64,000 nt of DNA, from the NCBI GenBank assembly GCA_040754335.1, contig JBFMCV010000007.1:62001-126000 (forward strand), read 5' to 3'. The DNA comes from Thermodesulfobacteriota bacterium. Lineage in GTDB: Bacteria; Desulfobacterota_D; UBA1144; Nemesobacterales; UBA2774. The translations under genes were made by a program, and so were the position numbers. Shown here in pieces: positions 46,865-55,623 of this stretch. Every line of letters starts with the position of its first letter. The first letter of the stretch is position 1. The notes below the pieces were generated by a model. The model searched no databases. It saw only the letters and a list, made by a program, of their open reading frames with translations, and was not told where the DNA came from.

Positions 46865-47482
46865 CTACTTATTAAATACCAGGTACTTATAACCTAGGAA
46901 GTTCCAGAGTATCACCAGTATTATAGACGTAAGCGTGGCTATGTTCGCCCATATTACGGGCGAAACGCCCCCGAGGGGGCCTATGACGTTAACCATGAAC
47001 GAAGCTACCAAGACATTGAGCGCAAAGCCTATGGCAGACACGCTTATGAACTTGACGAACTGCTTCCCCATGCCGTCCCTCTCCATGCACTCAAACGCCC
47101 AGAACTTGTTCCACACGTAGCTGTTAGCCACCGCAACCAGGAAGGACATACCCTTGAAGACAGAGAACATGTAGCCCTTGTGGACACCGGTGATAAACAT
47201 CAGAAAGTTGAGAATCCCGAAATCGATCGCCGTGTTCGATACCCCGATCGGTATGAATTTCCCGAATTGAAAAAGTATATGCCACCTGGTCCCGAGATGA
47301 GAGGCGAGATAGACCCAGAGCATTACTAAAGACGGGATGATTATCAGGAATGCGGGCCAAATCATATTATAGGGCACGTACCGTATATGGAGCTCGTCCT
47401 TGAGAGTGCTCAATATCGCTATCATAAACGCCGATATTATGACGCCGAGTATAATAGAAGCGGCTATATCCGACTTTTTCAT
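46865..47482 (-). CDS. GtrA-family membrane protein with N-terminal extension
   Basis: A 205-residue protein. Residues ~75-200 form the four-helix GtrA domain ([76 protein letters not shown]). GtrA proteins are thought to assist flipping of polyprenyl-phosphate sugars. The first ~70 residues add two extra hydrophobic segments not usual for the family. Last gene of a six-gene minus-strand run, 71 bases after the PMT gene. Confidence 0.88.
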
Positions 47483-47553
47483 ATCACGTCCCGAATCTCC
47501 AAGCCGTCACTCCGGTCATTGAAACTATCTTCACCAGACGAGGACCCATTAGA

Positions 47554-48864
47554 TTATTTCCACGTGTGAAGCCACATGTATCGGTCGAGATCAACATTCC
47601 TGATCGGCAGCGCGGAGAGAACGGGGAAAAAATAGAAGAACACCCCGCCGGCGATGCAGAAATAGATGACTACGAGAATCTTCCCTTTTCGGGAACTTTT
47701 CCACAGCTCATTCAGAAAATACGTACTTGTCAAAAGTATGAATATAAGAGAGGGGAGGAAATGATAAAGGAATACGACCTTCCGGGGAGAAAAAGCCCAA
47801 GGGAGCCAATATGCAAAAACGCTCAGCACGGTGAAAAGGAGTGGGGGCGTTTCCTTTCTTACCACCTGTATTATGCCCAGGATCAGGAACAATATTCCTG
47901 TATACCATATGAAAATATTACCCATTAAATAAATGTCGGATCTCATTCCTTTCCCCAAATCCGCATAATGAAGGAAAACAGGCCTAAGCATGAGAGGCCA
48001 TTTCCACCATGACGATTGATAAGGATGGGTCTCAGTTACCCCGCCGTGATACCCGAACATGTATCCCTGGAGGGTTAGAAAGTCCTGGAACGAATTGCCG
48101 TGATAGAAATAGGGTATGTACGTAGCCAGGTACACGAGGATCGGAATTGCGATGAATGCGAGCGCCATTCTCGGGATGATTTTTAAAAGAGAGGCGATAA
48201 ATTCCTTGTCGCGGACCTTCGTGGTATATACCTCGAAATAATACATCAGAAAAAGCGCCACCCCTGCAAGGAACTCGGTAATATAGACGCCGCTCCATTT
48301 GACGGACATCCCGGCCCCGCAGAAGAACCCGGTCAGGTAAAGATATGAATTCCGCCTGGTCCTCGCATATTTGACGATAAAAAGAGACGCAAGGATCAGG
48401 AAGACGGCGATAAAGATATCGACCATTGTAATCCGGCTCAGGACGAAAACAAAAGATTCAAAACTATACAAGATAGAGGCTATCAGCCCTGCCGATTTAC
48501 TGTCGAATAATTCCTTACCGAGCAAGTAGATGAACAGTGCTCCCAGCGACCCGAAGACGGATTGGAAAAACCGCCATCCGAACGTGTTATTGCCGAAAAT
48601 CAGGATGCCGATCGCGCTTATCTCCTTCCCGAGCGGAGGGTGAGTCCATTCGTAAGCAAGGTCTTCGGGAGCCTTCGCGCTGCTTTCCCAGGCGGCTCTG
48701 TTCCCTTTAGCCATTTCCTGCGCCGTGAAGGCGAAATAGACCTCGTCGAAGTAGTAACTGTCGGGTATCTCCAGGCGGTAGAATCTTATCCCGAAAGCGA
48801 ACAGCAGTATCAGCGCGAGAAGTAGCTCGGACTTGTATCTACCGATAAAAGATTGCTCTGGCAT
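47554..48864 (-). CDS. PMT-type protein O-mannosyltransferase (GT39)
   Basis: A 436-residue polytopic enzyme of the dolichyl-phosphate-mannose-protein mannosyltransferase family. It shows the acidic loop 1 motif YYFDEVYFAFTAQEM, the hallmark THPPLGKEISAIG, RFFQSVFGSLGALFIYLLG, SRITMVDIFIAVF, AGMSVKWSGVY, and the C-terminal four-helix region with FSPRKVVFLYHFLPSLIFILL. Bacterial members glycosylate Ser/Thr of exported proteins using polyprenyl-phosphate mannose. No large luminal MIR domain, as expected in bacteria. Eleven bases after the upstream GT-C gene. Confidence 0.92.
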   Translation of the reverse strand: MPEQSFIGRYKSELLLALILLFAFGIRFYRLEIPDSYYFDEVYFAFTAQEMAKGNRAAWESSAKAPEDLAYEWTHPPLGKEISAIGILIFGNNTFGWRFFQSVFGSLGALFIYLLGKELFDSKSAGLIASILYSFESFVFVLSRITMVDIFIAVFLILASLFIVKYARTRRNSYLYLTGFFCGAGMSVKWSGVYITEFLAGVALFLMYYFEVYTTKVRDKEFIASLLKIIPRMALAFIAIPILVYLATYIPYFYHGNSFQDFLTLQGYMFGYHGGVTETHPYQSSWWKWPLMLRPVFLHYADLGKGMRSDIYLMGNIFIWYTGILFLILGIIQVVRKETPPLLFTVLSVFAYWLPWAFSPRKVVFLYHFLPSLIFILLTSTYFLNELWKSSRKGKILVVIYFCIAGGVFFYFFPVLSALPIRNVDLDRYMWLHTWK

Positions 48865-48875
48865 ATGGTTATCTC

Positions 48876-54142: not shown

Positions 54143-54239
54143 CTCAGTGAGCGGTTGATAATATAATGAAACTATTGCTTTATGTCAATTTATAAGTTAT
54201 ACATTTTGTTTACCCGCCATTTTGAACAAGGAGCAAAGA

Positions 54240-55076
54240 ATGAAGATTTTGATACCTATCCTGCTGACAGCATTGCTTTTATCATCGGCTTGCGGCCAAT
54301 CGGGAACTGAAAAGTCGCCTGAGGGCAAGACCGGCAACGCGGGGCAGGAACAGAATGGAAGCACTGAAGCCGCAAAGGCCAAACCCGAAAGGAACTCAAA
54401 AGTGGTCGCCCGCGTAAACGGGGTCCCGATCTACGAAGACGAGCTAAACGGCAGGCCCGTGGATTCGCTCATAACGGACGAAATCCTCTACCAGAAGGGG
54501 CTGAACGAGGGACTGGACAAGAAATACGAGGACAGAATCAGGGAATACAGAATGAGCCTCGTGGTAATGGAAGTTAAGAACAAATTTACAGAGAGCCAGC
54601 CGCCGGAAGAGAAAATAACGGATGAAGACCTCCTCGAATACTACAATTCCGCAAAGGACACGGCTTACACCAGCATCCGCGCAGAGGAAATAAATTTTAA
54701 GGACGAAGGCCTGGGCGGTCAAATAATAAAAATGGCCAAGGAGGGGAAAAACCTCCAGGACATAGCGAAGGACCTGTCGGATGCGGAATCAGAGATGAAA
54801 GTTTCGGACCCGGGATACGATAAAAAGTATAACGCTTACTTCGACGTGAAAGAAGTCGGCTCCGTATCGAGCGTCATACGCAAACCGGACGGGACATACA
54901 GCGTACTCAAGATACTGGAAGTCAAAGTAATACCCTATGACAAGATCAAAAGTAAGATCGGGCACACCATAGAAGCCAGGCGGAAGGGAGCGGCTTTCAA
55001 CAAATATGCCCGGGAAGTAGCGCAACAGGACGGATTCACGGTGGAAATAATAGACAGTACAAGCCATAATAACTGA
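54240..55076 (+). CDS. SurA/PpiC-like lipoprotein (peptidyl-prolyl isomerase fold)
   Basis: A 278-residue lipoprotein: signal peptide MKILIPILLTALLLSSAC with lipobox Cys, an Asn/Glu/Lys-rich tether of ~40 residues, then a SurA-N-like region (KVVARVNGVPIYEDELNG, ITDEILYQKGLNEGLDK, KITDEDLLEYYNSAKD) and a parvulin-like segment (IRAEEINFKDEGLGGQIIKMAKEGKNLQDIAKDLSD... continuing to VGSVSSVIRKPDGTYSVLKILEVK). The start at 54240 has AAGGAG 8 bases upstream; a TTG at 54222 runs through that site. It lies 7 bases before the Tat-exported subunit gene, so it is probably a dedicated folding factor for the exported oxidoreductase. Confidence 0.85.
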   Translation: MKILIPILLTALLLSSACGQSGTEKSPEGKTGNAGQEQNGSTEAAKAKPERNSKVVARVNGVPIYEDELNGRPVDSLITDEILYQKGLNEGLDKKYEDRIREYRMSLVVMEVKNKFTESQPPEEKITDEDLLEYYNSAKDTAYTSIRAEEINFKDEGLGGQIIKMAKEGKNLQDIAKDLSDAESEMKVSDPGYDKKYNAYFDVKEVGSVSSVIRKPDGTYSVLKILEVKVIPYDKIKSKIGHTIEARRKGAAFNKYAREVAQQDGFTVEIIDSTSHNN

Positions 55077-55083
55077 AACGGAT

Positions 55084-55623
55084 ATGAAAAGCTCAAGAAG
55101 AAAATTCTTAAAGACGGTAGCCGCGGGAGTGATAGGAGGGGAGATAATATCGGGGGCCGCACCAGCAGTCTTCGCTAAAACCGAGCCGTATGCCGATGGG
55201 TTCGAAGTCCAAAAGGGCTTCAAGGTATTCAACGAAACTACGCAGAAAAATATGATGAAGCTCGCCGAGATCATCATACCGGGATGCGGAAACATCGGGA
55301 TGAAAGACAAGCTTATGCGGTACCTCTACAGCAGCAAGGGCACGGCCAGTTTTTTCGATGCCGGGTTTTGGAACCTGGACGCCGTCAGCAGGAAATATCT
55401 CAAGGTCCCGTTCTACGAGCTCGAAAAGAAGAAAGATATCGACGCCATCCTCAAACGTACAAGAGCCGTCAACAGGGGGTTCTTCGACAGCTTCAGAAAG
55501 ATTGTCGTTCAGTTCTACTATTCAGACCCGAGGGTATGGAAGACACTCTCATACGACGGGCCCCCGCAGCCAAGGGGTTTCATGGACTACTCGGAACCTC
55601 CCAAGCCGGCAAAAAAAGGATAG
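55084..55623 (+). CDS. Gluconate 2-dehydrogenase subunit 3 family protein, Tat-exported
   Basis: A 179-residue small subunit with a textbook twin-arginine signal (SSRRKFLKTVAAGVIGG, cleavage near VFAKT). The mature part shows the subunit-3 pattern (FNETTQKNMMKLAEIIIPGC, FFDAGFWNLDAVSRKYLKVPFYEL, FFDSFRKIVVQFYYSDPRVWKTLSYDGPPQPRGFMDYSEPP). In known systems this subunit carries the GMC flavoprotein across the membrane. A third, cytochrome c subunit is not in the window, so the electron acceptor is unknown. Cotranscribed with the lipoprotein, divergent from the GMC gene. Confidence 0.93.
   Translation: MKSSRRKFLKTVAAGVIGGEIISGAAPAVFAKTEPYADGFEVQKGFKVFNETTQKNMMKLAEIIIPGCGNIGMKDKLMRYLYSSKGTASFFDAGFWNLDAVSRKYLKVPFYELEKKKDIDAILKRTRAVNRGFFDSFRKIVVQFYYSDPRVWKTLSYDGPPQPRGFMDYSEPPKPAKKG

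What the first reader, a model, noticed from the sequence alone, without database searches (positions are those of the whole stretch)
46865..55623. An exported GMC oxidoreductase system encoded with its own glycosylation and folding genes
Six minus-strand genes (GMC flavoprotein, FG-GAP/ASPIC protein, GT2, GT-C, PMT, GtrA) are spaced 7, 27, -20, 11 and 71 bases apart, so they look like one operon. Divergent to it, 7 bases apart, lie a SurA-like lipoprotein and a Tat-signal subunit-3 protein, the known export partner of GMC dehydrogenases. Known families supply each part: a GT2 enzyme makes a polyprenyl-phosphate sugar, GtrA may flip it, and PMT transfers it to Ser/Thr. Combining them with a specific exported redox pair is unusual. 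The inferred system is a periplasmic or surface redox complex whose FG-GAP or GMC component is O-mannosylated.
Basis: partly seen in the sequence, partly recalled or inferred. Interest (0 to 1): 0.72.

Follow-up and report, generated by a model that had tools for sequence, protein, structure and literature searches.

The report
Exported iron-sulfur dehydrogenase with glycosylation genes
In an uncultured group of bacteria (Dadabacteria), genes for a secreted iron-sulfur flavin dehydrogenase and its export helpers sit in one tight gene row with genes for attaching sugars to proteins, but relatives show that the two sets are separable, so whether the sugars go onto the enzyme is open.

Summary
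In detail: six minus-strand genes (GMC, FG-GAP/ASPIC, GT2, GT-C, PMT, GtrA) with the stated gaps, and divergent SurA-like and Tat-signal subunit-3 genes. The genome is Candidatus Dadabacteria.

Of 60 genomes searched (own included), 17 have an orthologous GMC. In all 17 it is divergent from subunit 3, and in 15 it lies 3-13 bp from the FG-GAP gene. In 15 of 17 the row runs on into GT2; all 12 own-family genomes keep that gap within 47 bp. So an operon is likely there.

In two outgroup families the redox genes sit near an intramembrane protease and NAD synthase, with PMT elsewhere. In two other genomes a different PMT with GT2 and GtrA stands in this neighbourhood without a GMC. Unrelated neighbours keep their places too, so synteny alone is weak evidence. 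Nothing shows that the GMC or FG-GAP protein is glycosylated.

The GMC protein is nearest to fructose and glucose dehydrogenase large subunits, keeps their Fe-S cysteines plus a fourth, lacks the catalytic Asn (15 of 15) and has no multiheme cytochrome gene nearby.

A side find may be more novel: an apparently undescribed C-terminal sorting-like signal with Thr/Pro-rich linkers.

The parts
52493..54142 (-). GMC flavoprotein dehydrogenase, catalytic subunit, no signal peptide seen; C219-x2-C222-x2-C225-x3-C229 cluster motif
   Evidence: Pfam GMC N and C over cut-off; nearest solved: fructose dehydrogenase large subunit E 2e-70 and BcGDH E 7e-69; motif in 15 of 15 rows
50935..52485 (-). FG-GAP repeat protein with C-terminal ASPIC/UnbV domain; signal-peptide-like N-terminus, lipobox-like Cys instead in L108, L113, L114
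   Evidence: FG-GAP_3 173 bits, ASPIC 52.7 bits; N-termini read by eye
50191..50907 (-). GT2 polyprenyl-phosphate glycosyltransferase-like, no TM segment by hydropathy
   Evidence: PF00535 107.5 bits; PDB: ArnC E 4e-16, sll0501 (GtrB-like, name recalled) E 1.5e-10, DPM synthase E 1e-9; hydropathy
48876..50210 (-). GT-C type membrane glycosyltransferase (weak GT87)
   Evidence: PF09594 20.9 bits, below cut-off 25; 7 hydropathy peaks
47554..48864 (-). Protein O-mannosyltransferase (PMT) family, FDEV and HPPLGK motifs
   Evidence: PF02366 96 bits and PF16192 81 bits, over cut-offs; motifs; Pmt1 structure 6p25 E 1e-8
46865..47482 (-). GtrA/DPMS transmembrane protein
   Evidence: PF04138 67.9 bits; 4 hydropathy peaks
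54240..55076 (+). SurA/PrsA-like peptidyl-prolyl-isomerase-type lipoprotein
   Evidence: Invariant lipobox-region Cys in 21 of 21; model pLDDT 84.6; Foldseek SurA/PrsA/PEB4, best E 5e-7, low TM-scores; Rotamase_2 in 19 of 21, not in the window protein
55084..55623 (+). Tat-signal 'gluconate 2-dehydrogenase subunit 3'-like hitchhiker protein
   Evidence: Tat model over cut-off; PF13618 below cut-off in the window protein, at E<=0.1 in 14 of 14 aligned proteins, over cut-off in the G021 orthologue
54160..54188 (-). Promoter-like site TTGACA-17-TATATT upstream of GMC
   Evidence: 11 of 12 bases; such sites overall are fewer than in shuffles, so this is suggestive only
41251..41862 (-). CPBP intramembrane protease, myxosortase-like; directly beside the FG-GAP gene in three outgroup genomes
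   Evidence: Rce1-like 71 bits; Mrt_core 69.5 bits, below cut-off 100; adjacency in L113, L114, L297
57650..59677 (-). Protein with Thr/Pro-rich linker and C-terminal SCAIA...RRRKK sorting-like tail; candidate PMT target

Best explanation
Two modules run as one operon in this lineage. Module 1 is an exported dehydrogenase. The GMC flavoprotein folds in the cytoplasm with FAD and an iron-sulfur cluster, is carried out by Tat on the signal of its subunit-3 partner, and works outside with the FG-GAP/ASPIC protein; a SurA/PrsA-like lipoprotein helps folding. Module 2 makes a polyprenyl-phosphate sugar (GT2 with GtrA as a split DPM-synthase-like pair), and PMT, possibly with the second GT-C enzyme, moves it onto Ser/Thr of exported proteins. 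Shown here: families, order, tight spacing, export signals, conserved cysteines and distribution. Inferred: cofactors, the complex, the sugar and the transfer. Module 2 probably serves several envelope proteins (linkers of lipoproteins and of Thr/Pro-rich surface proteins), of which the FG-GAP or SurA-like protein may be one. It is probably not a modification system dedicated to the GMC enzyme.
For: GMC/subunit-3 divergence in 17 of 17 GMC contigs and GMC-FG-GAP spacing of 3-13 bp in 15 of 17. FG-GAP-to-GT2 gap at most 47 bp in 12 of 12 own-family contigs. Fe-S ligand positions of BcGDH (PMC6719666, passages) kept, plus one Cys, in 15 of 15. SurA/PrsA fold. PMT_4TMC over its cut-off in 18 of 60 genomes and in 1 of 14 controls. 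Independence of module 2: G016 has CPBP-GtrA-GT2-PMT'-ThiI and no GMC match; G022 has a PMT', GT2 and GtrA past subunit-3 and SurA fragments, no orthologous GMC (its 45% paralogue is on another contig) and no FG-GAP match. PMT' is a separate clade (100/100). Independence of module 1: G021 and G029.
Against: The PMT orthologue and the GMC go together almost perfectly (15 genomes have both; the 3 with one only, G009, G015 and G011, have it on contigs that end inside the row), even where unlinked, which would also fit a dedicated modification; both genomes with a GMC-free module carry a different PMT. In G029 an IS200-like transposase gene lies beside GMC, so its separation may be a recent rearrangement. 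No multiheme cytochrome gene lies in the loci held, so the electron acceptor is unknown. Subunit 3 gave no PDB fold match. The usual His/Asn catalytic pair is incomplete in the GMC, so activity is not assured.
Confidence: 0.6

Rival explanations
1. One reading: a dedicated system in which PMT O-mannosylates the FG-GAP and/or GMC component of this redox complex.
For: Tight operon in the own family; near-strict co-occurrence of GMC with the PMT orthologue, also in G021 and G029 where they are unlinked. Lipobox-bearing FG-GAP proteins (L108, L113, L114) have Ser/Asn-rich stretches after the Cys.
Against: A different PMT with GT2 and GtrA stands without GMC in G016 and G022. The window FG-GAP protein shows no Ser/Thr-rich linker by eye (13.7% Ser+Thr overall). 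The GMC would be exported already folded by Tat, whereas known PMT acts on Sec-exported substrates (recalled knowledge).
Confidence: 0.22
2. Neighbourhood without function: the region is a slowly rearranging syntenic block, and the redox and glycosylation genes are neighbours by inheritance only.
For: ThiI lies beyond subunit 3 in 12 of the 13 joined contigs that reach that far (not in G018), and NAD synthase keeps its place where the contigs reach it. Spacing loosens in the sister family: 90 bp, 479 bp, or 1.8 kb with a subtilase gene.
Against: Same-strand spacing of a few bases, with the identical -20 overlap between GT2 and GT-C in ten own-family contigs, is operon-like; functional linkage of GMC, subunit 3 and FG-GAP is hard to dismiss.
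Confidence: 0.2
3. Module 2 modifies a surface glycan or lipid (Gtr/ArnT-like) rather than protein; the 'PMT' is a sugar-to-glycan transferase.
For: GT2 resembles ArnC more than DPM synthase; other glycosyltransferase-like genes flank the row; PMT is far below the NCBIfam Pmt equivalog cut-off (105 of 800).
Against: The PMT_4TMC domain and the FDE and HPPLGK motifs mark protein-type PMT (meaning of the motifs recalled).
Confidence: 0.15

Closest known systems
Direct-electron-transfer FAD dehydrogenases (Burkholderia cepacia FAD-GDH, Gluconobacter fructose dehydrogenase)
   Same: GMC large subunit without signal; Tat-signal hitchhiker small subunit; Fe-S cysteines at the ligand positions; His in the FAD loop
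   Different: Four Cys in CxxCxxCxxxC spacing; catalytic Asn replaced by Ala/Ser; no multiheme cytochrome gene in the loci held; a near-constant FG-GAP/ASPIC neighbour instead; subunit 3 divergent
Actinobacterial protein O-mannosylation (PMT plus polyprenyl-phosphate-mannose synthase)
   Same: PMT and PMT_4TMC domains and motifs; a GT2 sugar-lipid synthase
   Different: Uncultured phylum with SurA-like lipoproteins (taken as didermic); GtrA as separate TM partner; operon with a dehydrogenase; below the NCBIfam equivalog cut-off
Gtr (GtrA/GtrB/GtrC) and ArnC/ArnT sugar-modification systems
   Same: GtrA plus GT2 plus a GT-C transferase
   Different: Acceptor transferase is of the PMT type
Myxosortase/MYXO-CTERM and JDVT-CTERM sorting (for the side find)
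   Same: CPBP protease; invariant Cys, hydrophobic stretch and Arg-rich end
   Different: Below all NCBIfam cut-offs; Dadabacteria; protease and target gene 16 kb apart in the window

Membership tests
DET-type FAD dehydrogenase complex (FAD-GDH/FDH/GADH) | GMC catalytic subunit of the FDH/GDH clade | tested here: met
   Profile best hits 7w2j (2e-70) and 6a2u (7e-69), far ahead of the next group at 7e-21
DET-type FAD dehydrogenase complex (FAD-GDH/FDH/GADH) | Three Fe-S cysteines (C212, C218, C222 of BcGDH) | tested here: met
   C219, C225, C229 take the same spacing; the printed alignment is to fructose dehydrogenase, and 15 of 15 rows keep them
DET-type FAD dehydrogenase complex (FAD-GDH/FDH/GADH) | His/Asn catalytic pair | tested here: not met
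   His482 kept; Asn position is Ala or Ser in 15 of 15 rows. 4 of 25 distant GMC proteins lack it too. An adjacent Glu/Asp means the alignment could be off by one
DET-type FAD dehydrogenase complex (FAD-GDH/FDH/GADH) | Tat-signal hitchhiker subunit | tested here: met
   Tat signal over cut-off; PF13618 in 14 of 14 aligned proteins at E<=0.1, over cut-off in the G021 orthologue (33.2) and a paralogue (72.9), below it in the window protein (17.4) and in L102 (22.5)
DET-type FAD dehydrogenase complex (FAD-GDH/FDH/GADH) | Fold of the hitchhiker subunit like solved gamma subunits | tested here: inconclusive
   Model pLDDT 76.7; no significant PDB match
DET-type FAD dehydrogenase complex (FAD-GDH/FDH/GADH) | Multiheme cytochrome c subunit encoded alongside | tested here: not met
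   No frame over 100 residues with more than one CXXCH in 22 loci examined; two single-motif frames only. A gene elsewhere in the genome was not sought
Protein O-mannosyltransferase (PMT) | PMT and PMT_4TMC domains | tested here: met
   96.1 and 81.3 bits over cut-offs 22.7 and 32.4
Protein O-mannosyltransferase (PMT) | Acidic DE motif and HPP(L)(G)K motif | tested here: met
   FDEV at 39, HPPLGK at 75; that these define the family is recalled
Protein O-mannosyltransferase (PMT) | Transfers mannose to Ser/Thr of protein | not testable with these tools
   Needs biochemistry or glycoproteomics
SurA/PrsA chaperones | SurA-like fold with parvulin-type domain | tested here: met
   Foldseek E 5e-7 to 6e-4 with SurA, PrsA, PEB4 and like chains (26 chains at E<=0.001), though global TM-scores are low (0.2-0.4); Rotamase_2 in 19 of 21, not in the window protein itself
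Myxosortase (CPBP protease 41251-41862) | NCBIfam myxosortase models over curated cut-off | tested here: not met
   Best: MrtP 78.7 of 250, Mrt_core 69.5 of 100 bits

The most novel reading that the evidence does not exclude
The locus belongs to a Dadabacteria surface-protein factory: a secreted Fe-S GMC dehydrogenase whose cytochrome subunit is replaced by an FG-GAP/ASPIC propeller, a PMT pathway that glycosylates Thr/Pro-rich or Ser/Thr-rich linkers of envelope proteins, and a myxosortase-like protease (41251-41862) that processes a new C-terminal sorting signal (SCAIA...RRRKK) carried by the neighbouring surface protein (57650-59677) and by dozens of proteins across the order.
Probability: 0.2. 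Interest if true: 0.72.

Novelty: new variant of a known kind. Interest (0 to 1): 0.5.

Why it matters
If right, it is a second design of the exported Fe-S flavin dehydrogenases used in biosensors, with a different partner protein and active site. It also gives a gene neighbourhood in which to look for protein O-glycosylation in an uncultured phylum. The CTERM-like signal would extend the myxosortase-type sorting systems to a new phylum.

Tried and rejected
Thr/Pro linkers as PMT targets: DNA that can encode PTPTPTPT (any frame; coding was checked only in three loci) occurs in 8 of 18 genomes with a PMT_4TMC over cut-off and 5 of 42 without (Fisher p 0.013). This is confounded by kinship. Of the five without, G030 and G032 have no PMT found, G014 and G015 may lack PMT through assembly gaps, and in G013 the match looks like low complexity (the reversed control matches there too). 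Many CTERM linkers in PMT-bearing genomes are not Thr/Pro-rich (G029, two of three in G000). So this target is a lead only.

SurA lipoprotein linkers: Ser/Thr counts are higher in many own-family rows than in G016, but G029 (with PMT) is low too. Not used as evidence.

CxxCxxCxxxC as a special feature: rejected. The same spacing is in 13 of the 27 distant GMC proteins for which one search printed the region. The replaced Asn is rarer: 21 of 25 (L127-L151) keep Asn there, 4 do not.

GMC beside FG-GAP in other phyla: one Bryobacterales locus (L135) of 29 has a divergent FG-GAP-like gene next to its GMC. FG-GAP/ASPIC genes are many in such genomes (recalled), so this may be chance.

A fold match for subunit 3 was sought and not found, nor a sequence match in the PDB.

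Literature: no paper of the library held both 'Dadabacteria' and 'CTERM' or 'Dadabacteria' and 'O-mannosyl'. Seven papers held two or more of 'GMC oxidoreductase', 'ASPIC', 'FG-GAP', 'UnbV'; one (on a fungus) held GMC with FG-GAP, and titles and abstract starts show no such pair as here (listing only). The library lacks most subscription papers. Only PMC6719666 and PMC11980579 were opened, and of these only found passages were seen.
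Full report
What is there. The window lies in a 3.26-Mb genome, 98% complete. The nearest named relatives are Candidatus Dadabacteria.

Families. Pfam puts the GMC, FG-GAP/ASPIC, GT2, PMT and GtrA proteins over their cut-offs. The GT-C protein is only a weak GT87 (20.9 of 25 bits). Subunit 3 is under the cut-off on its own (17.4 of 23.4), but 14 of 14 aligned proteins match PF13618 at E<=0.1. 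Of four scanned singly, the G021 orthologue (33.2 bits) and a paralogue in L222 (72.9) pass the cut-off; L102 (22.5) and the window protein do not. One row with a masked stretch (L099) was left out of that set. The SurA-like protein has no Pfam family itself; 19 of 21 aligned proteins match Rotamase_2, and its model (pLDDT 84.6) matches SurA, PrsA and PEB4 structures at E down to 5e-7, with low global TM-scores.

The enzyme. A profile of 15 GMC proteins finds fructose dehydrogenase and FAD-glucose dehydrogenase large subunits at about 1e-69, the next group at 7e-21. In BcGDH the 3Fe-4S cluster is held by Cys212, 218 and 222 (PMC6719666, passages seen). The same spacing falls on C219, C225 and C229 of the window protein, and C222 adds a fourth, in 15 of 15 rows. 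The four-Cys spacing also occurs in 13 of 27 more distant GMC proteins, so it is not special. The catalytic Asn position reads Ala or Ser in 15 of 15, with Glu or Asp before it; 21 of 25 distant relatives keep Asn. No frame with more than one CXXCH lies in the 22 loci examined. FG-GAP is the near-constant neighbour instead.

Distribution. Sixty genomes were searched, the own one included. Orthologous GMC (E below 1e-200): 17 of 60. Subunit 3 (E below 1e-28): the same 17. FG-GAP (E below 1e-120): those 17 and G016. PMT orthologue (E below 1e-70): 16 of 60, of which 15 have the GMC. G009 and G015 have GMC without PMT and G011 has PMT without GMC, each on a contig that ends inside the row. The other 42 have neither; among them three sister-family genomes, G026, G030 and G032, 89-94% complete.

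Order. Of the 17 GMC contigs, GMC and subunit 3 are divergent in 17. GMC and FG-GAP are 3-13 bp apart in 15, 324 bp in G034 by the ORF call, and apart in G029 (G018 and G021 read from the ORF table). FG-GAP is followed by GT2 in 15: within 47 bp in the 12 own-family contigs, looser in the sister family (90 bp, 479 bp, and 1.8 kb with a subtilase gene). PMT is on the same contig in 12. In G028 no GT-C match lies in the row. A promoter-like site with 11 of 12 bases lies just upstream of GMC, although such sites are fewer here than in shuffles.

Separation. In G021 the redox genes sit directly beside the CPBP protease, NAD synthase and GltBD; PMT is on another contig, and no GT2, GT-C or GtrA match was seen in the 12 kb read there. 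In G029 FG-GAP is beside the protease, GMC and subunit 3 a few kilobases on with an IS200-like transposase gene beside GMC, and GT2, GT-C, PMT and GtrA are on another contig. G025 also shows FG-GAP beside the protease at a contig end. In G016, which has no GMC match at E<=1e-10, the order is protease, GtrA, GT2, a different PMT, ThiI; its FG-GAP and SurA-like genes lie elsewhere among CTERM genes. In G022 subunit 3 and SurA are fragments, the orthologous GMC and FG-GAP are missing, and a different PMT with GT2 and GtrA stands past ThiI; a 45% GMC paralogue is on another contig. The different PMTs form a separate clade (100/100). A tree of NAD synthase groups the own and sister families (99/99) apart from G021 and G029. 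So the join is either derived in that clade or was lost outside it. ThiI lies beyond subunit 3 in 12 of the 13 joined contigs that reach that far, and NAD synthase keeps its place where contigs reach it. Plain synteny is therefore a weak argument; the few-base spacing is the stronger one.

The glycosylation half. GT2 resembles ArnC, a GtrB-type enzyme and DPM synthase, has no TM segment by hydropathy, and is paired with a GtrA/DPMS-type membrane protein. PMT has both PMT domains and the FDE and HPPLGK motifs. PMT_4TMC is uncommon: 18 of 60 genomes over the cut-off and 1 of 14 controls. A sugar-lipid made by GT2/GtrA and used by PMT is the natural inference. The acceptor is not shown.

A possible wider setting. 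The protein at 57650-59677 ends in a Thr/Pro-rich linker and a tail GGGGGSCAIAASPVQLGTAFANVLIPLVPVAFAFGVRAVRRRKK, conserved in seven aligned proteins, the window's and six relatives'. No NCBIfam sorting model reaches its cut-off. A profile of the tail matches in 24 of 60 genomes at E<=0.01, with 12 matches in G016 and 11 in G029; some weak matches are probably chance (for example those in L179 and L215). The protease 41251-41862 is closest to myxosortases but under their cut-offs, and is found in 33 of 60 genomes, among them f6 genomes with few or no tail matches. Myxosortase cuts MYXO-CTERM proteins at a signal with an invariant Cys (PMC11980579, passages seen). This is a lead, not part of the verdict.

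Verdict. The reading of one exported redox complex with its own dedicated O-mannosylation is possible (0.22) but not favoured: the parts form two modules that are joined as an operon in one clade and stand apart elsewhere.

Noticed in passing
window 57650-59677 (-) and tail matches in 24 of 60 genomes: C-terminal sorting-like tail (SCAIA...RRRKK) after a Thr/Pro-rich linker; matches no NCBIfam CTERM model over cut-off; 12 and 11 matches in G016 and G029.
   Followed up: partly
window 41251-41862 (-): CPBP intramembrane protease nearest to myxosortases (below cut-offs), directly beside the FG-GAP gene in G021, G025 and G029.
   Followed up: partly
L188 1054-1466 (G022): Fragments of subunit 3 and SurA side by side, as if the redox genes had been lost there.
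   Followed up: partly
L186 and L187 (G016 contig 73): FG-GAP and two SurA-like lipoproteins among several CTERM-tailed proteins with repeated Cys-rich segments; no GMC match in the genome at E<=1e-10.
   Followed up: partly
window 41917-46697: Further GT-C-like, PIG-V-like and GT2 genes flank the row; in some relatives (L102, L106) the 41917-type gene matches two or three times.
   Followed up: no
L222 1845-4157 (G018), L026 (G022), L031 (G028): A GMC paralogue (about 45% identical) in the sister family; in L222 it has its own co-directional subunit-3 gene that passes the PF13618 cut-off.
   Followed up: partly
window 57552-57583 (-): Strong terminator-like hairpin (14 pairs, T run) downstream of the 57650-59677 gene.
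   Followed up: no
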